Assembly (NCBI GenBank): GCA_964019135.1
Contig: OZ025253.1
Coordinates: 35,948,548-36,012,547, forward strand
Reading direction: 5' to 3'
DNA length: 64,000 bases
Source: Arenicola marina
Lineage: Eukaryota > Annelida > Polychaeta > Arenicolidae
The notes under the pieces are model-generated. The model ran no database searches. It was given only the letters and a program-made list of their open reading frames with translations, and was not told the origin of the DNA. Positions within the stretch are counted from its first letter, which is position 1. Each line of letters begins with the position of its first letter. Position numbers and translations under genes: made by a program. Positions 6,326 to 55,455 of the stretch are shown here, piece by piece.

Positions 6326-7106
6326 GATAACTCCTTTTCGACACGAGATCCCTCCTTTATTGACACGAGATCCCCTATTTATCGACACGAGATCTCCTCC
6401 GCGTCCACACAAGATCCCTTCTTTATTGACACGAGATCCCCTCCTTATCGACACGAGATCCCCTTCTCATCTACACGAGCTACCTTCTTTACTGACACGA
6501 GATCCCCTCCTTATCGACACGAGATCCCCACCTCATCCACAGGAGATCCCTACTTTATTGACGGGAGATCCCCTCCTTATCGACACGAGATGCCATCCTC
6601 ATTCACACGAGATCCCTTCTTTATTGACGCGAGATCCCCTTCTTATCGACACGAGATTCCTTCTTTATTGACACGATATCCCCTCCTAATCGACACGAGA
6701 TCCCTTCCTCATCGACACGAGATTATCTCCTTATCGACACGAGATCCTCTCCTTATCCACACGAGATCCCCTTCTAATCCACACGAGATCATTTCTTTAT
6801 TGACGCGAGATCCCCTCCTTATCGACACGAGATTTCCTCCTCATCCACACCAGATCCTTCTTTATTGACGCGAGATCCCCTCCTTATCGACACGATATCC
6901 CCTCCTCATCGACACGAGATCCCCTGCTTATCGACCCGAGATCCTCTCCTCACCCACACGAGATTCCTTCTTTATTGACACGAAATCCCATCCGCATCCA
7001 TACGAGATCCCTTCTTTATTAACACGAGATCGCCTCCTCATCCACACGAGATCCCTTCTTTATTGATGCGTGATCCCCTCCTTATCGACACGAGAACCTT
7101 TCTTTA
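6326..7106 (+). repeat. Left-edge, founder-like segment of the satellite with regular A-B-C triads
   Basis: The first 4-5 triads (about 6,345-6,650) keep strict A-B-C order and carry distinctive variants such as CTCCGCGTCCACACAAG (about 6,396), CCACCTCATCCACAGGAG and TGCCATCCTCATTCACACG. These variants recur in the last 6 kb of the array but are rare in the centre. Two overlapping plus frames stay open here (6,222-6,671 and 6,320-6,868). The first begins with ATG in unique DNA, encodes 39 non-repeat residues and then runs into satellite translation. Confidence 0.8.
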
Positions 7107-8602
7107 GTGACACGAGATTATCTCCTTATCGACACAAGATTCCCTCCTCATCGACACGAGATCCTCTCTTTATTGACGTGGGATCCCCTTCTTATTGACG
7201 CGAGATCCCTTCTTTACCGACACGAGATCCCATCCGCATCCGCGCGAGATCTCTTCTTTATTGACGCGATACCCCCTCCTTATCGACACCAGATCCCCTT
7301 CTTATCCACACGAGATCCTTTCTTTATTGACGCGAGATCCCCTCCTTATCGACACGAGATCCCCTCCTTATCTACGCGGGATCATTTCTTTATTGACGCA
7401 AGATCCCTTCCTTATCGACACGAGATTTTCTCCTCATCCACACGAGATCCTTTCTTTATTGACACGATATCCCCTCCTTATCGACACGATATCCCCTCCT
7501 CATCGACACGAGATCCCCTGCTTATCGACGCGAGATCCTCTCCTCACCCACACGAGATTCCTTCTTTATTGACACGAGATCCCATCCACATCCATACGAG
7601 ATCCATTCTTTATCAACACGAAATCGCCTCCTCATCCACACGAGATCCCTTCTTTATTGACGCGAGATCCCCTCCTTATCGACACGAGATCCCTTCTTTA
7701 TTGACAAGATATCCCCTCCTTATCGACACGAGATCCCCTCCTCATCCACAGGAGATCCCCTGCTCATCCACACGAGATCCCTTCTTTATTTACGCGAGAT
7801 CCCCTCCTTATCGACACGATATCCCCTCCTCATCGACACGAGATCCCCTGCTTATCGACGGGAGATCCTCTCCTCATCCACACGATATTCCTTCTTTATT
7901 GACACGAGATTCCATTAACATCCATACGAGATCCCTTCTTTATCGACACGAGACCCCCTCCTCATCCACACGAGATCCGTTCTTTATTGACGCGAGATCC
8001 CCTCCTTATCGACACGATATCCCCTCCTCATCGGCACGAGATCCCCTGCTTATCGACGCGAGATCTTCTCCTCATCCTCACAAGATTCCCTCTTTATTGA
8101 CACGAGATCCACTCGTCATCCACACGAGATCCCCTCTTCATCCATACAAGATCCCTTCTTTATTGACACGAGATCCCCTCCATATCGATACGAGATCCCC
8201 TCCTCATCCATACGAGATCCCTTCTTTATTGACACGAGATCCACTCGTCATCCATACGAGATCCCTTCTTTATTGACAGGAAACCCCCTCCTCATCCACA
8301 CGAGATCCTTTCTTTATTGACGCGAGATCCCCTCCTTATCGACACGATATCCCCTCCTCATTGACACGAGATCCCTTGCTTATCGACGCGAGATCCTCTC
8401 CTCATCCACACAAGATTCCTTCTTTATTGACACGAGATCCACTCGTCATCCACACGAGATCCCCTCTTCATCCACACGAGATCCCTTCTTTTTTGACACG
8501 AGATCCCCTCCATATCGATACGAGATCCCCTCCTCATCCACACGAGATCCCTTCTTTATTGACGCGTGATCCCCTCCTTATCGACACGAGAACCTTTCTT
8601 TT

Positions 8603-11600
8603 GTGACACGAGATTTCCTCCTTATCGACACAAGATCCCCTCCTTATCGACACGAGACCCTTTCTTTAGTGACACGAGATTCTCTCCTTATCGACACAAG
8701 ATTCCCTCCTCATCGACACGAGATCCTCTCTTTATTAACGCGAGATCCCCTTCTTATTGACGCGAGATCCCTTCTTTACCGACACGAGATCCCATCCGCA
8801 TCCACGCGAGATCCCTTCTTTATTGACGCGATATCCCCTCCTTATCGACACCAGATCCCCTTCTTATTCACACGAGATCCTTTCTTTATTGACGCGAGAT
8901 CCCCTCCTTATCGACACGAGATCCCTTCTTTATTGACACGAGATCCCCGCCTTATCGACACGAGATCCCCTCCTTATCTACGCGGGATCATTTCTTTATT
9001 GACGCAAGATCCCTTCCTTATCGACACGAGATTTTCTCCTCATCCACACGAGATCCTTTCTTTATTGACACGAGATCCCCTCCTTATCGACACGATATCC
9101 CCTCCTCATCGACACGAGATCCCCTGCTTATCGACGCGAGATCCTCTCCTCACCCACACGAGATTCCTTCTTTATTGACACGAGATCCCATCCACATCCA
9201 TACGAGATCCCTTCTTCATCAACACGAGATCGCCTCCTCATCCACACGAGATCCCTTCTTTATTGACGCGAGATCCCCTCCTTATCGACACGAGATCCCT
9301 TCTTTATTGACAAGAGATCCGCTCCTTATCGACACGAGATCCCTCCTCATCCACAGGAGATCCCCTGCTCATCCACACGAGATCCCTTCTTTATTTACGC
9401 GAGATCCCCTCCTTATCGACACGATATCCCCTCCTCATCGACACGAGATCCCCTGCTAATCGACGGGAGATCCTCTCCTCATCCACACGATATTCCTTCT
9501 TTATTGACACGAGATCCCATCCACATCCATACGAGATCCCTTCTTTATTGACACGAGACCCCCTCCTCATCCACACGAGATCCTTTCTTTATTGACGCGA
9601 GATCCCCTCCTTATCGACACGATATCCCCTCCTCATTGACACGAGATCCCTTGCTTATCGACGCGAGATCCTCTCCTCATCCACAAAAGATTCCTTCTTT
9701 ATTAACACGAGATCCACTCGTCATCCACACGAGATCCCCTCTTCATCCACACGAGATCCCTTCTTTATTGACACGAGATCCCCTCCATATCGATACGAGA
9801 TCCCCTCCTCATCCACACGAGATCCCTTCTTTATTGACGCGTGATCCCCTCCTTATCGACACGAGAACCTCTCTTTAGTGACACGAGATTATCTCCTTAT
9901 CGACACAAGATTCCCTCCTCATCGACACGAGATCCTCTCTTTATTGACGCGGGATCCCCTTCTTATTGACGCGAGATCCCTTCTTTACCGACACGAGTTC
10001 CCATCCGCATCCACGCGAGATCCCTTCTTTATTGACGCGATATCCCCTCCTTATCGACACCAGATCCCCTTCTTATCCACACGAGATCCTTTCTTTATTG
10101 ACGCGAGATCCCCTCCTTATCGACACGAGATCCCTTCTTTATTGACACGAGATCCCCGCCTTATCGACACGAGATCCCCTCCTTATCTACGCGGGATCAT
10201 TTCTTTATTGACGCAAGATCCCTTCCTTATCGACACGAGATTTTCTCCTCATCCACACGAGATCCTTTCTTTATTGACACGAGATCCCCTCCTTATCGAC
10301 ACGATATCCCCTCCTCATCGACACGAGATCCCCTGCTTATCGACGCGAGATTCTCTCCTCACCCACACGAGATTCCTCCTTTATTGACACGAGATCCCAT
10401 CCACATCCATACGAGATCCCTTCTTTATCAACACGAAATCGCCTCCTCATCCACACGAGATCCCTTCTTTATTGACGCGAGATCCCCTCCTTTTCGACAC
10501 GAGATCCCTTCTTTATTGACAAGAGATCCGCTCCTTATCGACACGAGATCCCCTCCTCATCCACAGGAGATCCCCTGCTCATCCACACGAGATCCCTTCT
10601 TTATTTACGTGAGATCCCCTCCTTATCGACACGATATCCCCTCCTCATCGACACGAGATCCTCTGCTTATCGACGGGAGATCCTCTCCTCATCCACACAA
10701 GATTCCTTCTTTATTGACACGAGATCCACTCGTCATCCACACGAGATCCCCTCTTCATCCACACGAGATCCCTTCTTTTTTGACACGAGATCCCCTCCAT
10801 ATCGATACGAGATCCCCTCCTCATCCACACGAGATCCCTTCTTTATTGACGCGTGATCCCCTCCTTATCGACACGAGAACCTTTCTTTTGTGACACGAGA
10901 TTCCCTCCTTATCGACACAAGATCCCCTCCTTATCGACACGAGACCCTTTCTTTAGTGACACGAGATTCTCTCCTTATCGACACAAGATTCCCTCCTCAT
11001 CGACACGAGATCCTCTCTTTATTAACGCGAGATCCCCTTCTTATTGACGCGAGATCCCTTCTTTACCGACACGAGATCCCATCCGCATCCACGCGAGATC
11101 CCTTCTTTATTGACGCGATATCCCCTCCTTATCGACACCAGATCCCCTTCTTATTCACACGAGATCCTTTCTTTATTGACGCGAGATCCCCTCCTTATCG
11201 ACACGAGATCCCTTCTTTATTGACACGAGATCCCCGCCTTATCGACACGAGATCCCCTCCTTATCTACGCGGGATCATTTCTTTATTGACGCAAGATCCC
11301 TTCCTTATCGACACGAGATTTTCTCCTCATCCACACGAGATCCTTTCTTTATTGACACGAGATCCCCTCCTTATCGACACGATATCCCCTCCTCATCGAC
11401 ACGAGATCCCCTGCTTATCGACGCGAGATCCTCTCCTCACCCACACGAGATTCCTTCTTTATTGACACGAGATCCCATCCACATCCATACGAGATCCCTT
11501 CTTCATCAACACGAGATCGCCTCCTCATCCACACGAGATCCCTTCTTTATTGACGCGAGATCCCCTCCTTATCGACACGAGATCCCTTCTTTATTGACAA

Positions 11601-11904
11601 GAGATCCGCTCCTTATCGACACGAGATTCCCTCCTCATCCACAGGAGATCCCCTGCTCATCCACACGAGATCCCTTCTTTATTTACGCGAGATCCCCTCC
11701 TTATCGACACGATATCCCCTCCTCATCGACACGAGATCCCCTGCTAATCGACGGGAGATCCTCTCCTCATCCACACGATATTCCTTCTTTATTGACACGA
11801 GATCCCCTCCTTATCGACACGATATCCCCTCCTCATCGACACGAGATCCCCTGCTTATCGACGCGAGATCCTCTCCTCACCCACACGAGATTCCTTCTTT
11901 ATTG
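8603..11904 (+). repeat. Duplicated satellite block, offset 2,287 bp, later 2,398 bp
   Basis: The sequence from 8,603 reappears from 10,890 (offset 2,287) with the same series of variant monomers. From 9,636 on, the matching copy starts at 12,034 (offset 2,398). The 111-bp change in offset is accounted for by five extra monomers near 11,790-11,905 and a 1-bp difference near 9,345 versus 11,625. This is a segmental duplication inside the array, with later small edits. Confidence 0.8.
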
Positions 11905-12781
11905 ACACGAGATCCCATCCACATCCATACGAGATCCCTTCTTTATTGACACGAGACCCCCTCCTCATCCACACGAGATCCTTTCTTTATTGACGCGAGA
12001 TCCCCTCCTTATCGACACGATATCCCCTCCTCATTGACACGAGATCCCTTGCTTATCGACGCGAGATCCTCTCCTCATCCACAAAAGATTCCTTCTTTAT
12101 TAACACGAGATCCACTCGTCATCCACACGAGATCCCCTCTTCATCCACACGAGATCCCTTCTTTATTGACACGAGATCCCCTCCATATCGATACGAGATC
12201 CCCTCCTCATCCACACGAGATCCCTTCTTTATTGACGCGTGATCCCCTCCTTATCGACACGAGAACCTCTCTTTAGTGACACGAGATTATCTCCTTATCG
12301 ACACAAGATTCCCTCCTCATCGACACGAGATCCTCTCTTTATTGACGCGGGATCCCCTTCTTATTGACGCGAGATCCCTTCTTTACCGACACGAGTTCCC
12401 ATCCGCATCCACGCGAGATCCCTTCTTTATTGACGCGATATCCCCTCCTTATCGACACCAGATCCCCTTCTTATCCACACAAGATCCATTCTTTATTGAC
12501 GCGAGATCCCCTCCTTATCGACACGAGATCCCTTCTTTATTGACACGAGATCCCCGCCTTATCGACACGAGATCCCCTCCTTATCTACGCGGGATCATTT
12601 CTTTATTGACGCAAGATCCCTTCCTTATCGACACGAGATTTTCTCCTCATCCACACGAGATCCTTTCTTTATTGACACGAGATCCCCTCCTTATCGACAC
12701 GATATCCCCTCCTCATCGACACGAGATCCCCTGCTTATCGACGCGAGATTCTCTCCTCACCCACACGAGATTCCTCCTTTA

Positions 12782-15700
12782 TTGACACGAGATCCCATCC
12801 ACATCCATACGAGATCCCTTCTTTATGAACACGAAATCGCCTCCTCATCCACACGAGATCCCTTCTTTATTGACGCGAGATCCCCTCCTTTTCGACACGA
12901 GATCCCTTCTTTATTGACAAGAGATCCGCTCCTTATCGACACGAGATCCCCTCCTCATCCACAGGAGATCCCCTGCTCATCCACACGAGATCCCTTCTTT
13001 ATTTACGTGAGATCCCCTCCTTATCGACACGATATCCCCTCCTCATCGACACGAGATCCTCTGCTTATCGACGGGAGATCCTCTCCTCATCTACACGATA
13101 TTCCTTCTTTATTGACACGAGATTCCATCCACATCCATACGAGATCCCTTCTTTATCGACACGAGACCCCCTCCTCATCCACACGAGATCCCTTCTTTAT
13201 TTATGTGAGATCCCCTCCTTATCGACACGATATCCCCTCCTCATCGACACGAGATCCCCTGCTTATCGACGCGAGATCTTCTCCTCATCCACACAAGATT
13301 CCTTCTTTATTGACACGAGATCCACTCGTCATCCACACGAGATCCCCTCTTCATCCATACGAGATCCCTTCTTTATTGACACGAGAACCCCTCCATATCG
13401 ATAGGAGATCCCCTCCTCATCCACACGAAATCCCTTCTTTATTGACACGAGATCCACTCGTCATCCACACGAGATCCCTTCTTTATTGACGCGTGATCCC
13501 CTCTTTATCGACACGAGATCTATTCTTTAGTGACACGAGATTCTCTCCTTATCGGCACAAGATCCCCTCCTCATCGACACGAGATCCCCTCTTTATTGAC
13601 GCGAGATCCCTTCTTTATTGACGCAAGATCCCCTCCTTATCGACACAAGATCCCTTCTTTATTGACACAAGATCCCCTATTTATCGACACGACATCTCCT
13701 CCGCGTCCACACAAGATCCCCTCCCTCATCGACACGAGATTCTCTCCTGATCGAGACGACATCCCCTCCTTATGGACACGAGATACCCTCCTCATCCACA
13801 CGCGATCCCTTCTTTATTGACACGAGATCCCCTCATTATCGACACGAGATCTCCTTATCTACACGAGATACCTTCTTTATTGACACGAGATCCCCTCCTT
13901 ATCCACACGAGATCCTTTCTTTATTGACGCAAGATCCGCTCCTTATCGACACGAGATCCCTTCTTTATTGACCCGATATCCCCTCCTAATCGACACGAGA
14001 AACCTTCCTCATCGACACGAGATTATCTCCTTATCGACACGAGATTTCCTCCTTATCGACACGAGATCCTCTCCTTATCTACACGAGATCATTTCTTTAT
14101 TGACGCAAGATCCCTTCCTTATCGACATGAGATTTTCTCCTCATCCACACGAGTTCCTTTCTTTATTGACACGAGATCCCCTCCTTATCGACACGATATC
14201 CCCTCCTCATCGACACGAGATCCCCTGCTTATCGACGCAGGATCCTCTCCTCACCCACACGAGATTCCTTCTTTATTGACACGAGATCCCATCCACATCC
14301 ATACGAGATCCCTTCTTTATCGACACGAGACCCCCTCCTCATCCACACGAGATCCTTTCTTTATTGACGCGAGATCCCCTCCTTATCGACACGATATCCC
14401 CTCCTCATCGACACGAGATCCCCTGCTTATCGACGCAAGATCCTCTCCTCATCCACACAAGATTCCTTCTTTATTGACACGAGACCCACTCGTCATCCAC
14501 ACGAGATCCCTTCTTCATCCATACGAGATCCCTTCTTTATTGACACGAGATCCCCTCCATATCGATAAGAGATCCCCTCCTCATCCACACGAGATCCCTT
14601 CTTTATTGACACGAGATCCCCTCCATATCGATACGAGATCCCCTCCTCATCCACACGAGATCCCTTCTTTATTGACGCGTGATCCCCTCCTTATCGACAC
14701 GAGCACCTTTCTTTAGTGACACGAGATTATCTCCTTATCGACACAAGATCCCCTCCTGATCGACACGAGATACTTTCTTTAGTGACACGAGATTCTCTCC
14801 TTATCGACACAAGATTCCCTGCTGATCGACACGAGATCCTCTCTTTATTGACGCGAGATCCCCTTCTTATTGACGCGAGATCCCTTCTTTTCCGACACGA
14901 GATCCCATCCGCATCCACGCGAGATCCCTTCTTTATTGACGCGATATCCCCTGCTTATCGACGCGAGGTCCTCTCCTCACCCACACGGGATCCCTTCTTT
15001 ATTGACGCGAGATCCCCTCCTTATTGACACGAGATCCCTTCTTTATTGACGCGAGATCCCCTCCTTATCGACACGAGATCCCCTCCTCATCCACATGAGA
15101 TCCCCTGCTCATCCACACGAGATCCCTTCTTTATTTACGCGAGATCCCCTCCTTATCGACACGATATCCCCTCCTCATCGACACGAGATCCCCTGCTAAT
15201 CGACGGGAGATCCTCTCCTCATCCACACGATATTCCTTCTTTATTGACACGAGATCCCATCCACATCCATACGAGATCCCTTCTTTATCGACACGAGACC
15301 CCCTCCTCATCCACACGAGATCCTTTCTTTATTGACGCGAGATCCCCTCCTTATCGACAGGATATCCCCTCCTCATTGACACGAGATCCCCTGCTTATCG
15401 ACGCGAGATCCTCTCCTCATCCACACAAGATTCCTTCTTTATTGACACGAGATCCACTCGTCATCCACACGAGATCGCCTCTTCATCCATACGAGATCCC
15501 TTCTTTATTGACATGAGATCCACTCGTCATCCACACGAGATCCCCTCTTCATCCATACGAGATCCCTTCTTTATTGACACGAGATCCCCTCCATATCGAT
15601 ACGAGATCCCCTCCTCATCCACACGAGATCCCTTCTTTATTGACGCGTGATCCCCTCCTTATCGACACGAGAACATTTCTTTAGTGACACGAGATTATCT

Positions 15701-16280
15701 CCTTATCGACACAAGATTCCCTCCTCATCGACACGAGATCCTCTCTTTATTGACGTGGGATCCCCTTCTTATTGACGCGAGATCCCTTCTTTACCGACAC
15801 GAGATCCCATCCGCATCCACGCAAGATCCCTTCTTTATTGACGCGATATCCCCTCCTTATCGACACCAGATCCCCTTCTTATCCACACGAGATCCTTTCT
15901 TTATTGACGCGAGATCCCCTCCTTATCGACACGAGATCCCTTCTTTATTGACACGAGATCCCCGCCTTATCGACACGAGATCCCCTCCTTATCTACGCGG
16001 GATCATTTCTTTATTGACGCAAAATCCCTTCCTTATCGACACGAGATTTTCTCCTCATCCACACGAGATCTTTTCTGTATTGACACGAGATCCCCTCCTT
16101 ATCGACACGATATCCCCTCCTCATCGACACGAGATCCCCTGCTTATCGACGCGAGATCCCCTCCTCACCCACACGAGATTACTTCTTTATTGACACGAGA
16201 TCCCATCCACATCCATACGAGATCCCTTCTTTATCAACACGAAATCGCCTCCTCATCCACACGAGATCCCTTCTTCATTG
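12782..16280 (+). repeat. Copy 1 of a 3.5-kb satellite block repeated about 9.13 kb further on
   Basis: The variant series from about 12,782 to 16,280 matches 21,910 to about 25,540. The offset is 9,128 up to about 13,840 and 9,131 after it. This copy lacks 3 bp near 13,846 (ATCTCCTTATCTACACG against ATCTCCTCCTTATCTACACG at 22,979), which explains the step. Near 15,500 the other copy has six extra monomers (132 bp), giving an offset of 9,263 at the end. Confidence 0.8.
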
Positions 16281-19200
16281 ACGCGTGATCCCCTCCTTAT
16301 CGACACGAGAACCTTTCTTTAGTGACACGAGATTATCTCCTTATCGACACAAGATTCCCTCCTCATCGACACGAGATCCTCTCTTTATTGACGTGGGATC
16401 CCCTTCTTATCGACGCGAGATCTTCTCCTCATCCTCACAAGATTCCCTCTTTATTGACACGAGATCCACTCGTCATCCACACGAGATCCCCTCTTCATCC
16501 ATACAAGATCCCTTCTTTATTGACACGAGATCCCCTCCATATCGATACGAGATCCCCTCCTCATCCATACGAGATCCCTTCTTTATTGACACGAGATCCA
16601 CTCGTCATCCATACGAGATCCCTTCTTTATTGACACGAAACCCCCTCCTCATCCACACGAGATCCTTTCTTTATTGACGCGAGATCCCCTCCTTATCGAC
16701 ACGATATCCCCTCCTCATTGACACGAGATCCCTTGCTTATCGACGCGAGATCCTCTCCTCATCCACACAAGATTCCTTCTTTATTGACACGAGATCCACT
16801 CGTCATCCACACGAGATCCCCTCTTCATCCACACGAGATCCCTTCTTTATTGACACGAGATCCCCTCCATATCGATACGAGATCCCCTCCTCATCCACAC
16901 GAGATCCCTTCTTTATTGACGCGTGATCCCCTCCTTATCGACACGAGAACCTTTCTTTTGTGACACGAGATTCTCTCCTTATCGACACAAGATCCACTCC
17001 TTATCGACACGAGATCCTTTCTTTAGTGACACGAGATTCTCTCCTTATCGACACAAGATTCCCTCCTCATCGACACGAGATCCTCTCTTTATTAACGCGA
17101 GATCCCCTTCTTATTGACGCGAGATCCCTTCTTTACCGACACGAGATCCCATCCACATCCACGCGAGATCCCTTCTTTATTGACGCGATATCCCCTCCTT
17201 ATCGACACCAGATCCCCTTCTTATTCACACGAGATCCTTTCTTTATTGACGCGAGATCCCCTCCTTATCGACACGAGATCCCTTCTTTATTGACACGAGA
17301 TCCCCGCCTTATCGACACGAGATTCCCTCCTTATCTACGCGGGATCATTTCTTTATTGACGCAAGATCCCTTCCTTATCGACACGAGATTTTCTCCTCAT
17401 CCACACGAGATGCTTTCTTTATTGACACGAGATCCCCTCCTTATCGACACGATATCCCCTCCTCATCGACACGAGATCCCCTGCTTATCCACGCGAGATC
17501 CTCTCCTCACCCACACGAGATTCCTTCTTTATTGACACGAGATCCCATCCACATCCATACGAGATCCCTTCTTTATCAACACGAGATCGCCTCCTCATCC
17601 ACACGAGATCCCTTCTTTATTGACGCGAGATCCCCTCCTTATCGACACGAGATCCCTTCTTTATTGACAAGAGATCCGCTCCTTATCGACACGAGATCCC
17701 CTCCTCATCCACAGGAGATCCCCTGCTCATCCACACGAGATCCCTTCTTTATTTACGCGAGATCCCCTCCTTATCGACACGATATCCCCTCCTCATCGAC
17801 ACGAGATCCCCTGCTAATCGACGGGAGATCCTCTCCTCATCCACACGACATTCCTTCTTTATTGACACGAGATCCCATCCACATCCATACGAGATCCCTT
17901 CTTTATTGACACGAGACCCCCTCCTCATCCACACGAGATCCTTTCTTTATTGACGCGAGATCCCCTCCTTATCGACACGATATCCCCTCCTCATTGACAC
18001 GAGATCCCTTGCTTATCGACGCGAGATCCTCTCCTCATCCACACAAGATTCCTTCTTTATTGACACGAGATCCACTCGTCATCCACACGAGATCCCCTCT
18101 TCATCCACACGAGATCCCTTCTTTATTGACACGAGATCCCCTCCATATCGATACGAGATCCCCTCCTCATCCACACGAGATCCCTTCTTTATTGACGCGT
18201 GATCCCCTCCTTATCGACACGAGAACCTCTCTTTAGTGACACGAGATTATCTCCTTATCGACACAAGATTCCCTCCTCATCGACACGAGATCATCTCTTT
18301 ATTGACGCGGGATCCCCTTCTTATTGACGCGAGATCCCTTCTTTACCGACACGAGTTCCCATCCGCATCCACGCGAGATCCCTTCTTTATTGACGCGATA
18401 TCCCCTCCTTATCGACACCAGATCCCCTTCTTATCCACACGAGATCCTTTCTTTATTGACGCGAGATCCCCTCCTTATCGACACGAGATCCCTTCTTTAT
18501 TGACACGAGATCCGCGCCTTATCGACACGAGATCCCCTCCTTATCTACGCGGGATCATTTCTTTATTGACGCAAGATCCCTTCCTTATCGACACGAGATT
18601 TTCTCCTCATCCACACGAGATCCTTTCTTTATTGACACGAGATCCCCTCCTTATCGACACGATATCCCCTCCTCATCGACACGAGATCCCCTGCTTATCG
18701 ACGCGAGATTCTCTCCTCACCCACACGAGATTCCTCCTTTATTGACACGAGATCCCATCCACATCCATACGAGATCCCTTCTTTATCAACACGAAATCGC
18801 CTCCTCATCCACACGAGATCCCTTCTTTATTGACGCGAGATCCCCTCCTTATCGACACGAGATCCCTTCTTTATTGACAAGAGATCCGCTCCTTATCGAC
18901 ACGAGATCCCCTCCTCATCCACAGGAGATCCCCTGCTCATCCACACGAGATCCCTTCTTTATTTACGTGAGATCCCCTCCTTATCGACACGATATCCCCT
19001 CCTCATCGACACGAGATCCTCTGCTTATCCACGCGAGATCCTCTCCTCACCCACACGAGATTCCTTCTTTATTGACACGAGATCCCATCCACATCCATAC
19101 GAGATCCCTTCTTTATCAACACGAGATCGCCTCCTCATCCACACGAGATCCCTTCTTTATTGACGCGAGATCCCCTCCTTATCGACACGAGATCCCTTCT

Positions 19201-24900: not shown

Positions 24901-25540
24901 TATTGACGCGTGATCCCCTCCTTATCGACACGAGAACATTTCTTTAGTGACACGAGATTATCTCCTTATCGACACAAGATTCCCTCCTCATCGACACGAG
25001 ATCCTCTCTTTATTGACGTGGGATCCCCTTCTTATTGACGCGAGATCCCTTCTTTACCGACACGAGATCCCATCCGCATCCACGCAAGATCCCTTCTTTA
25101 TTGACGCGATATCCCCTCCTTATCGACACCAGATCCCCTTCTTATCCACACGAGATCCTTTCTTTATTGACGCGAGATCCCCTCCTTATCGACACGAGAT
25201 CCCTTCTTTATTGACACGAGATCCCCGCCTTATCGACACGAGATCCCCTCCTTATCTACGCGGGATCATTTCTTTATTGACGCAAAATCCCTTCCTTATC
25301 GACACGAGATTTTCTGTTCATCCACACGAGATCTTTTCTGTATTGACACGAGATCCCCTCCTTATCGACACGATATCCCCTCCTCATCGACACGAGATCC
25401 CCTGCTTATCGACGCGAGATCCCCTCCTCACCCACACGAGATTCCTTCTTTATTGACACGAGATCCCATCCACATCCATACGAGATCCCTTCTTGATCAA
25501 CACGAAATCGCCTCCTCATCCACACGAGATCCCTTCTTCA
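21910..25540 (+). repeat. Copy 2 of the 3.5-kb satellite block
   Basis: This matches 12,782-16,280 and includes rare markers such as the Asp-rich frame over CTCCTGATCGAGACGAC (22,874) and the CTCCGCGTCCACACAAG monomer (22,827). An expansion by two triads at about 24,640-24,790 distinguishes it from copy 1. Confidence 0.8.
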
Positions 25541-25584
25541 TTGACGCGTGATCCCCTCCTGATCGACACGAGAACCTTTCTTTA

Positions 25585-41110: not shown

Positions 41111-42140
41111 CGCGTGATCCCCTCCTTATCGACACGAGATCCTTTCTTTAGTGACACGAGATTCTCTTCTTATCGGCACAAGATCCCCTCCTCATCGACA
41201 CGAGATCCCCTCTTTATTGACACGAGATCCCTTCTTTATTGACGCGAGATCCCCTCCTTATCGACACGAGATCCCTTCTTTATTGACACAAGATCCCCTA
41301 TTTATCGACACGAGATCCTTTCTTTATTGACGCGAGATCCCCTCCTTATCGACGCGATATCCCCTCCTCATCGACACGAGATCCCCTGCTTATCGACGCG
41401 AGATCCTCTCCTCACCTACACAAGATTCCTTCTTTATTGACACGAGATCCACTCGTCATCCACACGAGATCCCCTCTTCATCCATACGAGATCCCTTCTT
41501 TATTGACACGAGAACCCCTCCATATCGATAGGAGATCCCCTCCTCATCCACACGCGATCCCTTCTTTATTGACACGAGATCCACTCGTCATCCACACGAG
41601 ATCCCTTCTTTATTGACGCGTGATCCCCTCCTTATCGACACGAGATCTATTCTTTAGTGACACGAGATCCCCTCCTTATCGACACGATATCCCCTCCTCA
41701 TCGACACGAGATCCCCTGCTTATCGACGCGAGATCCTCTCCTCACCCACACGAGATTCCTTCTTTATTGACACGAGATCCCATCCACATCCATACGAGAT
41801 CCCTTCTTTATCAACACGAGATCGCCTCCTCATCCACACGAGATCCTTTCTTTATTGACGCGAGATCCCCTCCTTATCGACACGATATCCCCTCCTCATT
41901 GACACGAGATCCCTTGCTTATCGACGCGAGATCCTCTCCTCATCCACACAAGATTCCTTCTTTATTGACACGAGATCCACTCGTCATCCACACGAGATCC
42001 CCTCTTCATCCACACGAGATCCCTTCTTTATTGACACGAGATCCCCTCCATATCGATACGAGATCCCCTCCTCATCCACACGAGATCCCTTCTTTATTGA
42101 CGCGTGATCCCCTCCTTATCGACACGAGAACCTCTCTTTA

Positions 42141-44454: not shown

Positions 44455-47400
44455 CACGAGATCCCCTCCATATCGATACGAGATCCCCTCCTCATCCACA
44501 CGAGATCCCTTCTTTATTGACGCGTGATCCCCTCCTTATCGACACGAGAACCTTTCTTTTGTGACACGAGATTCTCTCCTTATCGACACAAGATCTCCTC
44601 CTTATCGACACGAGATCCTTTCTTTAGTGACACGAGATTCTCTCCTTATCGACACAAGATTCCCTCCTCATCGACACGAGATCCTCTCTTTATTGACGCG
44701 AGATCCCCTTCTTATTGACGCGAGATCCCTTCTTTGCCGACACGAGATCCCATCCGCATCCACGCGAGATCCCTTCTTTATTGACGCGATATCCCCTCCT
44801 TATCGACACGAGATCCCCTCCTTATCCACACGCGATCCTTTCTTTATTGACGCGAGATCCCCTCCTCATCGACACGAGATCCCCTTCTTATCGACGCGAG
44901 ATCCTCTCCTCATCTACACAAGATTCCTTCTTTATTGACACGAGATCCACTCGTCATCCACACGAGATCCCCTCTTCATCCACACGAGATCCCTTCTTTA
45001 CTGACACGAGAACCCCTCCATATCGATACGAGATCCCCTCCTCATCCACACGAGATTCCTTCTTTATTGACACGAGATCCACTCGTCATCCTCACGAGAT
45101 CCCCTCCTTATCGACACGATATCCCCTCCTCATCGACACGAGACCCCCTGCTTATCGACGCGAGATCCTCTCCTCACCCACACGAGATTCCTTCTTTATT
45201 GACACGAGATCCCATCCACATCCATACGAGATCCCTTCTTTATCAACACGAGATCGCCTCCTCATCCACACGAGATCCCTTCTTTATTGACGCGAGATCC
45301 CCTCCTTATCGACACGAGATCCCTTCTTTATTGACAAGAGATCCGCTCCTTATCGACACGAGATCCCCTCCTCATCCACAGGAGATCCCCTGCTCATCCA
45401 CACGAGATCCCTTCTTTATTTACGCGAGATCCCCTCCTTATCGACACGATATCCCCTCCTCATCGACACGAGATCCCCTGCTAATCGACGGGAGATCCTC
45501 TCCTCATCCACACGATAGTCCTTCTTTATTGACACGAGATCCCATCCACATCCATACGATATCACTTCTTTATTGACACGAGACCCCCTCCTCATCCACA
45601 CGAGATCCTTTCTTTATTGACGCGAGATCCCCTCCTTATCGACACGATATCCCCTCTTCATTGACACGAGATCCCTTGCTTATCGACGCGAGATCCTCTC
45701 CTCATCCACACAAGATTCCTTCTTTATTGACACGAGATCCACTCGTCATCCACACGAGATCCCCTCTTCATCCACACGAGATCCCTTCTTCATTGACACG
45801 AGATCCCCTCCATATCGATACGAGATCCCCTCCTCATCCACACGAGATCCCTTCTTTATTGACGCGTGATCCCCTCCTTATCGACACGAGAACCTCTCTT
45901 TAGTGACACGAGATTATCTCCTTATCGACACAAGATTCCCTCCTCATCGACACGAGATCCTCTCTTTATTGACGCGGGATCCCCTTCTTATTGACGCGAG
46001 ATCCCTTCTTTACCGACAAGAGTTCCCATCCGCATCCACGCGAGATCCCTTCTTTATTGACGCGATATCCCCTCCTTATCGACACCAGATCCCCTTCTTA
46101 TCCACACGAGATCCTTTCTTTATTGACGCGAGATCCCCTCCTTATCGACACGAGATCCCTTCTTTATTGACACGAGATCCCCGCCTTATCGACACGAGAT
46201 CCCCTCCTTATCTACGCGGGATCATTTCTTTATTGACGCAAGATCCCTTCCTTATCGACACGAGATTTTCTCCTCATCCACACGAGATCCTTTCTTTATT
46301 GACACGAGATCCCCTCCTTATCGACACGATATCCCCTCCTCATCGACACGAGATCCCCTGCTTATCGACGCGAGATTCTCTCCTCACCCACACGAGATTC
46401 CTTCTTTATTGACACGAGATCCCATCCACATCCATACGAGATCCCTTCTTTATCAACACGAAATCGCCTCCTCATCCACACGAGATCCCTTCTTTATTGA
46501 CGCGAGATCCCCTCCTTATCGACACGAAATCCCTTCTTTATTGACAAGAGATCCGCTCCTTATCGACACGAGATCCCCTCCTCATCCACAGGAGATCCCC
46601 TGCTCATCCACACGAGATCCCTTCTTTATTTACGTGAGATCCCCTCCTTATCGACACGAGATCCCTTCTTTATTGACGCGTGATCCCCTCCTTATCGACA
46701 CGAGAACCTCTCTTTAGTGACACGAGATTATCTCCTTATCGACACAAGATTCCCTCCTCATCGACACGAGATCCCCTCCTCATCCACAGGAGATCCCCTG
46801 CTCATCCACACGAGATCCCTTCTTTATTTACGTGAGATCCCCTCCTTATCGACACGATATCCCCTCCTCATCGACACGAGATCCCCTGCTTATCGACGGG
46901 AGATCCTCTCCTCATCTACACGATATTCCTTCTTTATTGACACGAGATTCCATCCACATCCTTACGAGATCCCTTCTTTATCGACACGAGACCCCCTCCT
47001 CATCCACACGAGATCCTTTCTTTATTGACGCGAGATCCCCTCCTTATCGACACGATATCCCCTCCTCATTGACACGAGATCCCTTGCTTATCGACGCGAG
47101 ATCCTCTCCTCATCCACACAAGATTTCTTCTTTATTGACACGAGATCCACTCGTCATCCACACGAGATCCCCTCTTCATCCATACGAGATCCCTTCTTTA
47201 TTGACACGAGATCCCCTCCATATCGATACGAGATCCCCTCCTCATCCACACGAGATCCCTTCTTTATTGACGCGTGATCCCCTCCTTATCGACACGAGAA
47301 CCTCTCTTTAGTGACACGAGATTATCTCCTTATCGACACAAGATTCCCTCCTCATCGACACGAGATCCTCTCTTTATTGACGCGAGATCCCCTTCTTATT

Positions 47401-48590
47401 GACGCGAGATCCCTTCTTTACCGACACGAGTTCCCATCCGCATCCACGCGAGATCCCTTCTTTATTGACGCGATATCCCCTCCTTATCGACACCAGATCC
47501 CCTTCTTATCCACACGAGATCCTTTCTTTATTGACGCGAGATCCCCTCCTTATCGACACGAGATCCCTTCTTTATTGACACGAGATCCCCGCCTTATCGA
47601 CACGAGATCCCCTCCTTATCTACGCGGGATCATTTCTTTATTGACGCAAGATCCCTTCCTTATCGACACGAGATTTTCTCCTCATCCACACGAGATCCTT
47701 TCTTTATTGACACGAGATCCCCTCCTTATCGACACGATATCCCCTCCTCATCGACACGAGATCCCCTGCTTATCGACGCGAGATTCTCTCCTCACCCACA
47801 CGAGATTCCTTCTTTATTGACACGAGATCCCATCCACATCCATACGAGATCCCTTCTTTATCAACACGAAATCGCCTCCTCATCCACACGAGATCCCTTC
47901 TTTATTGACGCGAGATCCCCTCCTTATCGACACGAGATCCCTTCTTTATTGACAAGAGATCCGCTCCTTATCGACACGAGATCCCCTCCTCATCCACAGG
48001 AGATCCCCTGCTCATCCACACGAGATCCCTTCTTTACTTACGTGAGATCCCCTCCTTATCGACACGATATCCCCTCCTCATCGACACGAGATCCTCTGCT
48101 TATCGACGGGAGATCCTCTCCTCATCTACACGATATTCCTTCTTTATTGACACGAGATTCCATCCACATCCAAACGAGATCCCTTCTTTATCGACACGAG
48201 ACCCCCTCCTCATCCACACGAGATCCATTCTTTATTTATGTGAGATCCCCTCCTTATCGACACGATATCCCCTCCTCATCGACACGAGATCCCCTGCTTA
48301 TCGACGCGAGATCTTCTCATCCACACAAGATTCCTTCTTTATTGACAGGAGATCCACTCGTCATCCACACGAGATCCCCTCTTCATCCATACGAGATCCC
48401 TTCTTTATTGACACGAGATCCCCTCCATATCGATACGAGATCCCCTCCTCATCCACACGAGATCCCTTCTTTATTGACACGAGATCCCCTCTTCATCCAC
48501 ACGAGATCCCTTCTTTATTGACACGAGATCCCCTCCATATCGATACGAGATCCCCTCCTCATCCACACGAGATCCCTTCTCTATTGACGC

Positions 48591-51500
48591 GTGATCCCCT
48601 CTTTATCGACACGAGAACCTTTCTTTTGTGACACGAGATTCTCTCCTTATCGACACAAGATCCCCTCCTTATCGACACGAGATCCTTTCTTTAGTGAAAC
48701 GAGATTCTCTCCTTATCGACACAAGTTTCCCTCCTCATCGACACGAGATCCTCTCTTTATTGACGCGAGATCCCCTTCTTATTGACGCGAGATCCCTTCT
48801 TTACCGACACGAGATCCCATCCGCATCCACGCGAGATCCCTTCTTTATTGACGCGATATCCCCTCCTTATCGACACGAGATCCCCTCCTTATCCACACGC
48901 GATCCTTTCTTTATTGACGCGAGATCCCCTCCTTATCGACACGAGATCCCTTCTTTATTGACACGAGATCCCCTATTTATCGACACGAGATACCCTCCTT
49001 ATCTACACGAGATACCTACTTTATTGACACGATATCCCCTCCTTATCGACACGAAATCCCCACCTCATCCACAGGAGATCCCTACTTTATTGACGGGAGA
49101 TCCCCTCCTTATCGACACGAGATGCCATCCTCATTCACACGAGATCCCTTCTTTATTGACGCGAGATCCCTTCTTATCGACACGAGATTCCTTCTTTATT
49201 GACACGATATCCCCTCCTAATCGACACGAGATCCCTTCCTCATCGACACGAGATCATATCTTTATCGACACGACATCCTCTCCTTATCCACACGAGATCC
49301 CCTTCTAATCTACACGAGATCATTTCTTTATTGACGCGAGATCCCCTCCTTATCGACACGAGATTTCCCCCTCATCCACACGAGATCCTTCTTTATTGAC
49401 GCGAGATCCCCTCCTTATCGACACGATATCCCCTCCTCATCGACACGAGACCCCCTCCTTATCGACACGAGACCCCCTCCTTATCGACACGAGATCCCCT
49501 CCTTATCTACACGAGATACCTTCTTTATTGACACGAGATCCCCTTCTAATCTACACGAGATCATTTCTTTATTGACGCGAGATCCCCTCCTCATCCACAG
49601 GAGATCCCCTGCTCATCCACACGAGATCCCTTCTTTATTTACGCGAGATCCCCTCCTTATCGACACGATATCCCCTCCTCATCGACACGAGATCCCCTGC
49701 TAATCGACGGGAGATCCTCTCCTCATCCACACGATATTCCTTCTTTATTGACACGAGATCCCATCCACATCCATACGAGATCCCTTCTTTATTGACACGA
49801 GACCCCCTCCTCATCCACACGAGATCCTTTCTTTATTGACGCGAGATCCCCTCCTTATCGACACGATATCCCCTCCTCATTGACACGAGATCCCTTGCTT
49901 ATCGACGCGAGATCCTCTCCTCATCCACACAAGATTCCTTCTTTATTGACACGAGATCCACTCGTCATCCACACGAGATCCCCTCTTCATCCACACGAGA
50001 TCCCTTCTTTATTGACACGAGATCCCCTCCATATCGATACGAGATCCCCTCCTCATCCACACGAGATCCCTTCTTTATTGACGCGTGATCCCCTCCTTAT
50101 CGACACGAGAACCTCTCTTTAGTGACACGAGATTATCTCCTTATCGACACAAGATTCCCTCCTCATCGACACGAGATCCTCTCTTTATTGACGCGGGATC
50201 CCCTTCTTATTGACGCGAGATCCCTTCTTTACCGACACGAGTTCCCATCCGCATCCACGCGAGATCCCTTCTTTATTGACGCGATATCCCCTCCTTATCG
50301 ACACCAGATCCCCTTCTTATCCACACGAGATCCTTTCTTTATTGACGCGAGATCCCCTCCTTATCGACACGAGATCCCTTCTTTATTGACACGAGATCCC
50401 CGCCTTATCGACACGAGATCCCCTCCTTATCTACGCGGGATCATTTCTTTATTGACGCAAGATCCCTTCCTTATCGATACGAGATTTTCTCCTCATCCAC
50501 ACGAGATCCTTTCTTTATTGACACGAGATCCCCTCCTTATCGACACGATATTCCCTCCTCATCGACACGAGATCCCCTGCTTATCGACGCGAGATTCTCG
50601 CCTCACCCACACGAGATTCCTTCTTTATTGACACGAGATCCCATCCACATCCATACGAGATACCTTCTTTATCAACACGAAATCGCCTCCTCATCCACAC
50701 GAGATCCCTTCTTTATTGACGCGAGATCCCTTCCTTATCGACACGAGATCCCTTCTTTGTTGACAAGAGATCCGCTCCTTATCGACACGAGATCCCCTCC
50801 TCATCCACAGGAGATCCCCTGCTCATCCACACGAGATCCCTTCTTTATTTACGTGAGATCCCCTCCTTATCGACACGATATCCCCTCCTCATCGACACGA
50901 GATCCTCTGCTTATCGACGGGAGATCCTCTCCTCATCTACACGATATTCCTTCTTTATTGACACGAGATTCCATCCACATCCATACGAGATCCCTTCTTT
51001 ATCGACACGAGACCCCCTCCTCATCCACACGAGATCCCTTCTTTATTTATGTGAGATCCCCTCCTTATCGACACGATATCCCCTCCTCATCGACACGAGA
51101 TCCCCTGCTTATCGACGCGAGATCTTCTCCTCATCCACACAAGATTCCTTCTTTATTGACACGAGATCCACTCGTCATCCACACGAGATCCCCTCCTCAT
51201 CCACACGAGATCCCTTCTTTATTGACACGAGATCCCCTCTTCATCCACACGAGATCCCTTCTTTATTGACACGAGATCCCCTCCATATCGATACGAGATC
51301 CCCTCCTCATCCACACGAGATCCCTTCTCTATTGACGCGTGATCCCCTCCTTATCGACACGAGAACCTTTCTTTTGTGACACGAGATTCTCTCCTTATCG
51401 ACACAAGATCCCCTCCTCATCGACACGAGATCCTTTCTTTAGTGACACGAGATTCTCTCCTTATCGACACAAGTTTCCCTCCTCATCGACACGAGATCCT

Positions 51501-54500
51501 CTCTTTATTGACGCGAGATCCCCTTCTTATTGACGCGAGATCCCTTCTTTACCGACACGAGATCCCATCCGCATCCACGCGAGATCCCTTCTTTATTGAC
51601 GCGATATCCCCTCCTTATCGACACGAGATCCCCTCCTTATCCACACGCGATCCTTTCTTTATTGACGCGAGATCCCCTCCTTATCGACACGAGATCCCTT
51701 CCTTATTGACACGAGATCCCCTATTTATCGACACGAGATCTCCTCCGCGTCCACACAAGATCCCTTCTTTATTGACACGAGATCCCCTCCTTATCGACAC
51801 GAGATACCCTCCTTATCTACACGAGATACCTTCTTTATTGACACGATATCCCCTCCTTATCGACACGAAATCCCCACCTCATCCACAGGAGATCCCTACT
51901 TTATTGACGGGAGATCCCCTCCTTATCGACACGAGATGCCATCCTCATTCACACGAGATCCCTTCTTTATTGACGCGAGATCCCTTCTTATCGACACGAG
52001 ATTCCTTCTTTATTGACACGATATCCCCTCCTAATCGACACGAGATCCCTTCCTCATCGACACGAGATCATAACTTTATCGACACGACATCCTCTCCTTA
52101 TCCACACGAGATCCCCTTCTAATCTACACGAGATCATTTCTTTATTGACGCGAGATCCCCTCCTTATCGACACGAGATTTCCTCCTCATCCACACGAGAT
52201 CCTTCCTTATTGACGCGAGATCCCCTCCTTATCGACACGATATCCCCTCCTCATCGACACGAGACCCCCTCCTTATCGACACGAGATCCCCTCCTTATCT
52301 ACACGAGATACCTTCTTTATTGACACGAGATCCCCTCGTTATCGACACGAGATCCCCACCTCATCCACAGGAGATCCCTACTTTATTGACGGGAGATCCC
52401 CTCCTTATCGACAGGAGAGCTCCTGCTCATCCACACGAGATCCCTTCTTTATTTACGCGAGATCCCCTCCTTATCGACACGATATCCCCTCCTCATCGAC
52501 ACGAGATCCCCTGCTTATCGACGGGAGATCCTCTCCTCATCCACACGATATTCCTTCTTTATTGACACGAGATTCCATCCATATCCATACGAGATCCCTT
52601 CATTATCGACACGAGACCCCCTCCTCATCCACACGAGATCCGTTCTTTATTGACGCGAGATCCCCTCTTTATCGACACGATATCCCCTCCTCATCGACAC
52701 GAGATCCCCTGCTTATCGACGCGAGATCTTCTCCTCATCCACACAAGATTCCTTCTTTATTGACACGAGATCCACTCGTCATCCACACGAGATCCCCTCT
52801 TCTTCCATGCGAGATCCCTTCTTTATTGACACGAGATCCCCTCCATATCGATACGAGATCCCCTCCTCATCCACACGAGATCCCTTCTTTATTGACACGA
52901 GATCCACTCGTCATCCACACGAGATCCCCTCTTCATCCACACGAGATCCCTTCTTTATTGACACGAGATCCCCTCCATATCGATACGAGATCCCCTCCTC
53001 ATCCACACGAGATCCCTTCTTTATTGACGCGTGATCCCCTCCTTATCGACACGAGAACCTTTCTTTTGTGACACGAGATTCTCTCCTTATCGACACAAGA
53101 TCCCCTCCTTATCGACACGAGATCCTTTCTTTAGTGACGCGAGATCCTCTCCTTATCGACACGAGATCCCTTCTTTATTGACACGAGATCCCCTATTTAT
53201 CGACACGAGATCTCCTCCGCGTCCACACAAGATCCCTTCTTTATTGACACGCGATCCCCTCCTTATCGACACGAGATCCCCTCCTTATCTACACGAGATA
53301 CCTTCTTTATTGACACGAGATCCCCTCCTTATCGACACGAGATGCCATCCTCATTCATACGAGATCCCTTCTTTATTGACGCGAGATCCCTTCTTATCGA
53401 CACGAAATTCCTTCTTTATTGACACGATATCCCCTCCTAATCGACACGAGATCCCTTCCTCATCGACACGAGATTATATCCTTATCGACACGACATCCTC
53501 TCCTTATCCACACGAGATCCCCTTCTAATCTACACGAGATCATTTCTTTATTGACGCGAGATCCACTCCTTATCGACACGAGATTTCCTCCTCATCCACA
53601 CGAGATCCTTCTTTATTGACGCGAGATCCCCTCCTTATCGACACGATATCCCCTCCTCATCGACAAGAGGTCCCCTGCTTATCGACGCGAGATCCTCTCC
53701 TCACCCACACGAGATTCCTTCTTTATTGACACGAGATCCCATCCACATCCATACGAGATCCCTTCTTTATCAACACTAGATCGCCTCCTCATCCACACGA
53801 GATCCCTTCTTTATTGACGCGAGATCCCCTCCTTATCGACACGAGATCCCTTCTTTATTGACAGGAGATCCCCTCCTTATCGACACAAGATCCCCTCCTC
53901 ATCCACAGGAGATCCCCTGCTCATCCACACGAGATCCCTTCTTTATTGACACGAGATCCACTCGTCATCCACACGAGATCCCCTCTTCATCCTCACGAGA
54001 TCCCTTCTTTATTGACACGAGAACCCCTCCATATCGATAGGAGATCCCCTCCTCATCCACACGAGATCCCTTCTTTATTGACAAGAGATCCACTCGTCAT
54101 CCACACGAGATCCCTTCTTTATTGACGCGTGATCCCCTCCTTATCGACACGAGATCTTTTCTTTAGTGACACGAGATTCTCTCCTTATCGGCACAAGATC
54201 CCCTCCTCATCGGCACAAGATCCCCTCTTTATTGACGCGAGATCCCTTCTGTATTGGCGCGAGATCCCCTCCTTATCGACACGAGATCCCCTCCTTATCC
54301 ACACGAGATCCTTTCTTTATTGACGCGAGATCCCCTCCTTATCGACACGAGATCCCTTTTTTATTGACACAAGATCCCCTATTTATCGACACGGTATCTC
54401 CTCCGCGTCCAGACAAGATCCCCTCCCTCATCGACACGAGATTCTCTCCTGATCGAGACGAGATCCCTTCCTTATGGACACGAGATTCCCTCCTCATCCA

Positions 54501-54865
54501 CACGAGATCCCTTCTTTATTGACACGAGATCCTCTCATTATCGACACGAGATCTCCTCCTTATCTACAAGAGATACCTTCGTTATTGACGCGAGATCCCC
54601 TCCTTATCCACACGAGAGCCTTTCTTTATTGACGCGAGATCCCCTCCTTATCGACACGAGATCCCTTCTTTATTGACACGATATCCCCTCCTAATCGACA
54701 CGAGATCCCTTCCTCGTCGACACCAGATTATCTCCTTATCGACACGAGATCCTCTCCTGATCGACACGAGATCCCCACCTTATCTACACGAGATCATTTC
54801 TTTATTGACGCAAGATCCCTTCCTTATCGACACGAGATTTCCTCCTCATCCACACGAGATCCTTT
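48591..54865 (+). repeat. Right-hand diverged part of the satellite with founder-like segments
   Basis: The block from 48,628 recurs at 51,376 (offset 2,748). Segments at about 48,950-49,400, 51,715-52,210, 53,190-53,620 and 54,360-54,840 carry the same rare variants as the left edge (CTCCGCGTCCACAC, CATCCTCATTCACACG or CTCCTAATCGACACGAG). These segments show more single-base losses than the centre, which is typical of satellite edges. Confidence 0.75.
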
Positions 54866-54890
54866 CTTTATTGACGCGAGATCAATAAAG
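54866..54890. repeat. Small fold-back junction inside the satellite
   Basis: CTTTATTG (54,866-54,873) and its exact inverse CAATAAAG (54,883-54,890) flank ACGCGAGAT. The second arm is the only inverted satellite fragment I noticed. It separates the mixed-subtype array from the B-rich tail. Confidence 0.8.
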
Positions 54891-55455
54891 GAGATCCCCT
54901 CCTTATCGACACGAGATCCCCTCCTTATCGACACCAGATCCCCTCCTTATCGACACGAGATCCCCCCCTCATTGACACGTGATCCCTCCTGATCGACACC
55001 AGATCCCCTCCTTATCGACACAAGATCCCCTCCTTATCGACACGAGATCCCCTACTTATCGACACGAGATCCCCTCCTTATCGACACGAGATCCCCTCCT
55101 CATCGACACCAGATCCCCTCCTTATCGACACGAGATCCCCTCCTTATCGACACGAGATCCCCTCCTCATCGACACGAGATCCCCTCCTTATCGACACGAG
55201 ATCCCCTCCTTATCGACACCAGATCCCCTCCTCATCGACACAAGATCCCCTCCTTATCGACACGAGATCCCCCCTCATCGACACGTGATCCCTCCTGATC
55301 GACACCAGATCCCCTCCTCATCGACACGAGATTCCCTCCTTATCGACACAAGATCCCCTCCTTATCGACTCGAGATCCCTTCCTTATCAACAAAATATCC
55401 TCTTTTCAGACGCGATATCCCTTCCTTATCGACACGAGCTGCCATCCTTATCGAT
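54891..55455 (+). repeat. B-rich tail of the satellite
   Basis: About 26 monomers here are almost all of the TTATCGACAC or TCATCGACAC kind, without the TTTATTGAC subtype A seen elsewhere. An ACACGTGATCCCTCCTGATC segment occurs at 54,975 and 55,281, 306 bp apart, close to 14 monomers. Because subtype A supplies the stop codon, all plus frames are open here, producing a 170-codon frame (54,979-55,491) that runs into flanking DNA. The last monomers decay and end in TTATCGATGG. Confidence 0.85.

What the first reader, a model, noticed from the sequence alone, without database searches (positions are those of the whole stretch)
6326..55455. A 49-kb, single-orientation satellite with a 22-bp monomer
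The sequence shows about 2,200 head-to-tail copies with no inserted mobile element, which is large and clean for such a short monomer. The core is CCTTATCGACACGAGATC. I do not recognise it as a described satellite. It could be centromeric, subtelomeric, sex-chromosome linked or germline-restricted; the sequence alone does not choose.
Basis: partly seen in the sequence, partly recalled or inferred. Interest (0 to 1): 0.7.

Follow-up and report, generated by a model that had tools for sequence, protein, structure and literature searches.

The report
One-chromosome cluster of 22-base repeats
A 49,000-base stretch of a worm chromosome is a real run of a 22-base repeat, one of about a dozen such runs in a 1.3-million-base duplicated region of that chromosome, and it looks like ordinary, rapidly reshuffling, non-coding repeat DNA.

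Summary
The array is real: window 6331-55454, about 2,230 monomers of 22 bp, one orientation. It is not an isolated, clean block. Neighbouring monomers are about 74% identical; homogenisation is at multi-monomer blocks, with top self-offsets 1431, 4147 and 1408 bp. All 45 exact matches of two dimers lie on one contig (C6, 46.5 Mb) at 35.50-36.61 Mb, all forward. Twelve arrays of about 4-60 kb were identified there, all in one orientation and all ending at the same right flank. Five also share the left flank, four of them at 99-100%. So the cluster grew by same-orientation segmental duplication. Sibling arrays differ by whole monomers: the four length shifts seen are all multiples of 22. The right edge begins with the 3' end of a dispersed piggyBac-like MITE, but the monomer does not resemble it, and MITE copies are not enriched for nearby tandem repeats. 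One of ten control positions fell inside a 38-bp array, a 32-mer of which also recurs locally in one orientation. Verdict: a new, locus-specific minisatellite/satellite family, probably in an annelid, evolving by unequal exchange plus segmental duplication. No function is indicated.

The parts
6331..55454 (+). 22-bp tandem array (about 2,233 monomers; main forms CCCTCCTTATCGACACGAGATC, CCTTCTTTATTGAC[A/G]CGAGATC and CCCTCCTCATCCACACGAGATC), organised as a mosaic of multi-monomer blocks with top self-offsets 1431, 4147 and 1408 bp
5450..6325 (+). left flank, present 5 times over its full length, all on C6 and in one orientation, each followed by an array (ending at 35698914 with 92%; window; 36116093, 36452411 and 36738704 with 99%)
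   Evidence: arrays:
55455..55660 (+). right flank shared by the 12 identified arrays on C6
55456..55555 (+). 3' end of a dispersed, about 375-bp MITE-like element with inverted termini (TTAAAGCTATT...AATAGCTTTAA, TTAA at the ends); its 5' part, about three quarters, is missing and the array abuts the break
55646..55820 (+). about 19-bp minisatellite (CTAACCGTGTCGCC...), also seen in the right flanks of the sibling arrays at 35.781 and 35.808 Mb
58250..59320 (+). 21-bp minisatellite (TGCTACGACCTGTGGGGACAC), also right of the sibling array at 35.808 Mb
60048..60646 (+). 29-bp minisatellite, also right of the sibling array at 35.808 Mb
62947..63586 (+). 40/85-bp minisatellite, also right of the sibling array at 35.808 Mb

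Best explanation
A locus-specific, non-coding minisatellite/satellite family. SHOWN: a 22-bp repeat stands next to the broken end of a piggyBac-like MITE on contig C6. The unit 'array plus right flank' is present in 12 identified copies over 1.3 Mb, all in one orientation; five also share the left flank. In the two sibling pairs that are collinear where read, lengths differ by whole monomers. Other siblings with about 99% identical flanks have scrambled block order. Six of the 16 least homogenised blocks of the window array lie at its ends. INFERRED: the array first grew by replication slippage and unequal exchange within one ancestral locus; the locus then spread by unequal crossing-over or other tandem segmental duplication, which keeps orientation; unequal exchange and conversion inside each array keep reshuffling multi-monomer blocks. 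No selected function is needed or indicated.
For: Period and orientation. Block mosaic: 92.5% of the array is covered by 66-mers that recur exactly; the median best identity of a 440-bp block to another place in the array is 99.3%, and 6 of the 16 blocks (of 222) below 90% lie in the first 0.7 or last 1.4 kb. Single locus: 32 of 32 exact 40-mers and 13 of 13 exact 41-mers on C6 between 35.50 and 36.61 Mb, all forward; 4,114 forward and 1 reverse at up to 2 mismatches (only part is listed, and of the listed places one, the reverse one, is on C4, the others on C6). Shared flanks: the right flank has 26 matches; 15 on C6 over at least 156 bp, all forward, of which 12 belong to an array; left flank 5 full copies, and the same 5 for window 4030-4720. 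Whole-monomer length changes: -44, +110 and -22 between the arrays at 36.116 and 36.452 Mb and +88 between those at 35.500 and 35.808 Mb. Scrambled order: the stretches read of the arrays at 36.452, 36.739 and 36.116 Mb match the window array only in pieces of about 76-628 bp at 93-100% identity. No RNA family in the window; stop codons in all six frames of the array.
Against: The + strand carries fewer stops (290, 284 and 288 per frame) than the - strand (768, 762 and 763) and has open stretches of up to 488 codons; this follows from the monomer, but no test of translation was made. Of sibling arrays, I read two in full (35.781 and 35.808 Mb), the first 1.9 kb of that at 35.500 Mb, the first 3-8 kb of three and about the last kilobase of four; other lengths rest on the distance between flank matches or on core hits. 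CpG is not depleted in the array (observed/expected 1.44), so there is no sign of methylation-driven decay, as might be expected in methylated heterochromatin. The pattern searches are exact or allow 2 mismatches, so diverged copies elsewhere would be missed.
Confidence: 0.82

Rival explanations
1. The array is a satellite born from the MITE: the monomer was an internal repeat of the element, or the element's insertion seeded the expansion.
For: The arrays end at a MITE remnant; composite MITE-plus-array structures are described for Xstir and miDNA4 in Xenopus (review passages in PMC12628747).
Against: Three monomer variants match 17 MITE copies no better than shuffled monomers (58, 54 and 45 of 60 shuffles reach the best score). 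Tandem repeats covering at least 100 bp lie in 5 of 17 MITE loci and in 3 of 10 control positions. The C6 arrays can share the junction by descent from one event.
Confidence: 0.07
2. The cluster is the (peri)centromere of this one chromosome, with a chromosome-specific satellite under centromere drive.
For: Chromosome-specific, one-orientation, block-structured arrays over 1.3 Mb, with LINE and other repeat sequence between the arrays that were read.
Against: The arrays are separated by tens of kb of other sequence and total only about 0.28 Mb by the lengths found, with one array (36.285 Mb) of unknown length. A similar local cluster was met at 1 of 10 control positions, which suggests, on few data, that such clusters are too common to mark centromeres.
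Confidence: 0.06
3. The array or its multiplicity is an assembly artefact (false duplication of haplotypes, or mis-sized arrays).
For: Some right flanks are 100% identical over 206 bp (36.004, 36.176 and 36.502 Mb); no raw reads could be examined.
Against: The siblings differ in length (flank to flank 49.1, 60.2, 49.7, 49.5 and 4.0 kb; others about 20.1, 13.8 and 7.7 kb), in left junction and in the presence of a 1.8-kb insertion, and the right flanks of the 12 range from 89 to 100% identity to the window's; two haplotypes cannot give 12 copies in series on one contig.
Confidence: 0.05

Closest known systems
Large minisatellites / locus-specific satellites with multi-monomer (higher-order) homogenisation (general class; recalled)
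   Same: short monomer, head-to-tail, whole-monomer length changes, block-wise homogenisation, diverged array edges
   Different: no known family with this monomer was found (text search only); here the array locus itself is duplicated at least 12 times in one orientation
[quoted passage not shown]
   Same: class of repeat by unit length (10-99 bp); same phylum by inference from mitochondrial gene order
   Different: that paper, in the passages seen, gives totals and no such family; the species here is not identified
MITE-associated satellites Xstir and miDNA4 of Xenopus (passages of the review PMC12628747)
   Same: tandem array joined to a miniature inverted-repeat element
   Different: the monomer here does not resemble the element and the element is only a truncated flank
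Satellites derived from arrays inside LTR retrotransposons in Lathyrus (PMC7004042, abstract and outline seen)
   Same: arrays that expanded at particular places
   Different: no retrotransposon that contains the 22-bp array was seen here; it was not searched for as such

Membership tests
satellite / minisatellite DNA | head-to-tail tandem repetition of a short unit | tested here: met
   2,107 of 2,181 anchor gaps equal 22; TRF 6331-55454
satellite / minisatellite DNA | non-coding | tested here: met
   stops in all six frames, 284-768 each; no Rfam match in the window; no protein family was sought in the array's open frames
satellite / minisatellite DNA | length change by whole units | tested here: met
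   4 of 4 register shifts inside the arrays of two sibling pairs are multiples of 22
higher-order-repeat satellite | multi-monomer blocks far more alike than neighbouring monomers | tested here: met
   74% between neighbours against a median of 99.3% for best-matching 440-bp blocks; block length is variable, so there is no single HOR unit
centromeric satellite | present on most chromosomes | tested here: not met
   45 of 45 exact dimer matches on one contig
centromeric satellite | bound by CENP-A | not testable with these tools
   no chromatin data
subtelomeric satellite | near a chromosome end | tested here: not met
   36 Mb into a 46.49-Mb contig; that the contig is a whole chromosome is assumed
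MITE-derived satellite | monomer derived from the element | tested here: not met
   no better than shuffles against 17 copies
sex-linked or germline-restricted satellite | sex- or tissue-limited coverage | not testable with these tools
   no reads and no second genome
piggyBac-like MITE (the flank element) | short element with terminal inverted repeats and TTAA at the ends | tested here: met
   alignment of 17 loci, the better kept ones ending in TTAA or near it; inverted matches of 28-34 bp between ends; no autonomous partner was sought; the family's features are recalled

The most novel reading that the evidence does not exclude
The 1.3-Mb block of one-orientation 22-bp arrays is a chromosome-specific functional chromatin domain (a centromere of this chromosome alone, or a germline-specific domain) whose satellite is renewed by segmental duplication.
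Probability: 0.06. Interest if true: 0.55.

Novelty: new member of a known kind. Interest (0 to 1): 0.2.

Why it matters
Mostly as a clean natural experiment. Several sibling arrays with near-identical flanks let one count, per unit of flank divergence, how often a 22-bp array gains, loses and reshuffles monomers. It also hints, on few data, that minisatellite clusters which duplicate together with their flanks are common in this genome. It does not reveal a new kind of element.

Tried and rejected
Coding sequence: rejected on stop codons. Structured RNA: no Rfam match in the window at gathering score. Another element that carries the array: not pursued beyond the MITE, since left junctions differ between arrays. 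MITE as seed: rejected. For one search, 18 MITE loci had been fetched; L030 was dropped as a near-duplicate of L029 (98% over its length), leaving 17. The first seven had been found through the C6 flank and are 1.48-1.60 kb long against 1.34 kb for controls; the controls are ten round coordinates on the same contigs, not random draws. Faster substitution inside the array than in the flank: a first count (25 of 3,077 against 2 of 1,846; Fisher p 0.0005) is not claimed, because 13 of the 25 sit at joins of my alignment segments; away from the joins it is 12 of 2,930, p 0.10. Species: contig C762 holds a COX1 (Pfam) open in invertebrate code 5; by eye I read ND3, ND2, COX1, COX2, ATP8 and COX3 on one strand with tRNAs between (ARAGORN with the bacterial code found none), which I recall as the annelid ground pattern. 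None of the annelid genome abstracts listed gives 867.4 Mb (listing and starts of abstracts), nor does PMC12917360 (outline). Other literature searches, listings only.
Full report
OBSERVATION. TRF places the array at 6331-55454. Anchoring on ACACGAGATC with up to 2 mismatches gave 2,182 hits; 2,107 of 2,181 gaps are 22 bp, 50 are 44 and 14 are 21. The stretch lies on one strand: GC skew is between -0.43 and -0.47 in the 2-kb steps of the interior, and in the 264 kb around the window the anchor with up to one mismatch matched 2,831 times forward and once in reverse.

INTERNAL STRUCTURE. Neighbouring monomers agree at 74% (lag 22, ungapped), with 77% at lag 44 and 76% at lag 66, because three main variants alternate: CCCTCCTTATCGAC, CCTTCTTTATTGAC and CCCTCCTCATCCAC, each followed by ACGAGATC or a near form (313 distinct monomers among the 2,142 that were cut out). 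Long-range identity is far higher: 92.5% of the array is covered by 66-mers that recur exactly, and the strongest offsets are 1431, 4147 and 1408 bp. Of 222 overlapping 440-bp blocks the median best match elsewhere in the array is 99.3% without gaps; 53 have an exact copy; 16 are below 90%, six of them in the first 0.7 or last 1.4 kb (some of the other ten may reflect small indels). This is block-wise homogenisation of variable block length, with diverged edges.

GENOMIC CONTEXT. The window is G000:C6:35948548-36012547 of an 867-Mb, 762-contig genome; C6 has 46.49 Mb. The exact core occurs 886 times forward and 0 in reverse (only the first places are listed, all on C6). Two exact dimers, whose matches are all listed, occur 32 and 13 times, all on C6 between 35.50 and 36.61 Mb and all forward. 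With up to 2 mismatches a 22-mer occurs 4,114 times forward and once in reverse (the listing is partial: all listed places are on C6 except the reverse one, on C4). As a contrast, a dimer of a 21-bp minisatellite from C20 occurs 12 times forward and 8 in reverse on seven contigs. The 22-bp family is therefore, as far as these searches reach, local and oriented. Copies more diverged than 2 mismatches were not sought.

SIBLING ARRAYS. The right flank (window 55455-55660) has 26 matches: 15 on C6 over at least 156 bp, all forward; three of 57 bp on C6, not read; and eight on other contigs, which were read and are MITE copies. Twelve of the 15 belong to an array. For seven of these the sequence directly upstream was read: the window, 35.789 and 35.828 Mb, and 36.176, 36.285, 36.318 and 36.621 Mb (16-45 monomers in 1.0-1.1 kb). 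For 35.514, 35.630, 35.703 and 36.502 Mb core or dimer hits lie 0.3-0.7 kb upstream. For 36.788 Mb only the left end of the array was read. Three copies of the flank have no array: 36.201 Mb and the second copy at 36.621 Mb (0 monomers) and 35.790 Mb (no cluster). The left flank (5450-6325) has five full-length matches, all on C6 and forward; the same five recur for window 4030-4720. Other matches of these two queries are partial, most of them dispersed over other contigs. Pairing left with right flanks gives distances of 4.0, 49.1 (window), 60.2, 49.7 and 49.5 kb; the last three include the 1.8-kb insertion described below. Other arrays have other left edges: that at 35.781 Mb starts at other sequence, and those at 35.500 and 35.808 Mb share a minisatellite edge. 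Further right, window 61400-62300 has one other full copy, at 36.682 Mb, which does not stand at the same distance from a right flank (only 40 of 3,071 candidates were scored), so the duplicated blocks are themselves mosaic.

HOW SIBLINGS DIFFER. The arrays at 36.116, 36.452 and 36.739 Mb carry a 1.8-kb non-satellite insertion at their left edge, bounded by GCGAGATC on both sides where this was read out (36.452 Mb), that the window lacks. The first two are collinear over the 5 kb read, at 98.9-99.8%, with a 58-bp difference inside the insertion and then shifts in register of -44, +110 and -22. The stretch read of the array at 35.500 Mb is collinear with that at 35.808 Mb at 99.0-99.8% with a shift of +88. 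All four shifts inside the arrays are multiples of 22. The array at 36.739 Mb, although 99.5% identical to that at 36.452 Mb through the first 2.2 kb, is not collinear beyond, and none of the three is collinear with the window array, where only pieces of about 76-628 bp match at 93-100%. So the internal order is remade faster than the flanks diverge. Whether single bases also change faster inside is not shown (12 of 2,930 against 2 of 1,846, p 0.10).

THE RIGHT EDGE. The first 100 bases of the right flank are the 3' end of a dispersed element. Seventeen loci aligned show an element of about 375 bp with matching termini of about 30 bp and, in the better kept copies, TTAA at its ends; I read this as a piggyBac-like MITE (name by recalled features). 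One copy used as a query gave 746 first-look candidates, of which 40 were scored and listed. In C6 about three quarters of the element, the 5' part, are missing and the array stands there. The monomer does not resemble the element more than shuffled monomers do. Tandem repeats covering at least 100 bp lie in 5 of 17 MITE loci and in 3 of 10 control positions at round coordinates, so the neighbourhood is not special. The controls are few and not strictly random.

HOW ORDINARY IT IS. One control position, C2:20,000,001, lay wholly in a 38-bp array; an exact 32-mer of it recurs five times within 107 kb, all forward, at intervals of about 22-38 kb, and nowhere else (those places were not read). 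That resembles the C6 pattern. In an earthworm genome minisatellites make up 2.65% of the sequence (PMC12130307, passages). The likely host is an annelid, from mitochondrial gene order read by eye (the ground pattern is recalled).

MECHANISM. Shown: local, oriented, block-homogenised arrays that differ by whole monomers and share flanks. Inferred: slippage and unequal exchange made and remake the arrays; tandem segmental duplication spread the locus, which explains one orientation. Not shown: transcription, chromatin state, read depth, polymorphism. A function is neither needed nor excluded. Membership: it meets the tests of satellite/minisatellite DNA with higher-order structure; it fails those of a general centromeric, a subtelomeric and a MITE-derived satellite.

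NOVELTY. The monomer string, in four forms, is in none of the 5.39 million papers of the library, which says little, since most repeat families live in databases and supplements. It is a new member of a known kind.

Noticed in passing
L009-L010 (C6:35758549-35772500): A 1,631-bp unit repeated 8.6 times at about 95%, with open frames that by eye look like a carbohydrate sulfotransferase (AGTSNLYKLM); the one such frame scanned had no Pfam match at E 0.01.
   Followed up: partly
L020-L022 (C6:35877305-35895308): Large tandem array with a step of about 525 bp (TRF period 1,574) over about 18 kb, between two 22-bp arrays.
   Followed up: no
L037:109-1921 (C6:36452420-36454232) and the matching place in L038 and L039: 1.8-kb AT-rich insertion bounded by GCGAGATC on both sides, present in three sibling arrays and absent from the window.
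   Followed up: partly
L042 (C6:36283895-36284894): Two SINE-like insertions (tRNA-type by eye) inside a decayed sibling array.
   Followed up: no
C20:18332175-18506893: Seven copies of the MITE within 175 kb, about 15-42 kb apart, six in one orientation and one reversed; the one read (L032) lies between 21-bp tandem arrays: perhaps another duplicated cluster.
   Followed up: partly
C2:20001900-20108795: 38-bp minisatellite with five local copies of one 32-mer, all forward, at intervals of about 22-38 kb.
   Followed up: partly
window 1716-2255 (-): Fragment of a reverse transcriptase (Pfam RVT_1, E 0.0005, below the curated cut-off), a decayed LINE.
   Followed up: partly
window 61633-62013: A common dispersed repeat of about 380 bp, with 93-94% identical copies on many contigs (3,071 first-look candidates, 40 scored).
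   Followed up: no
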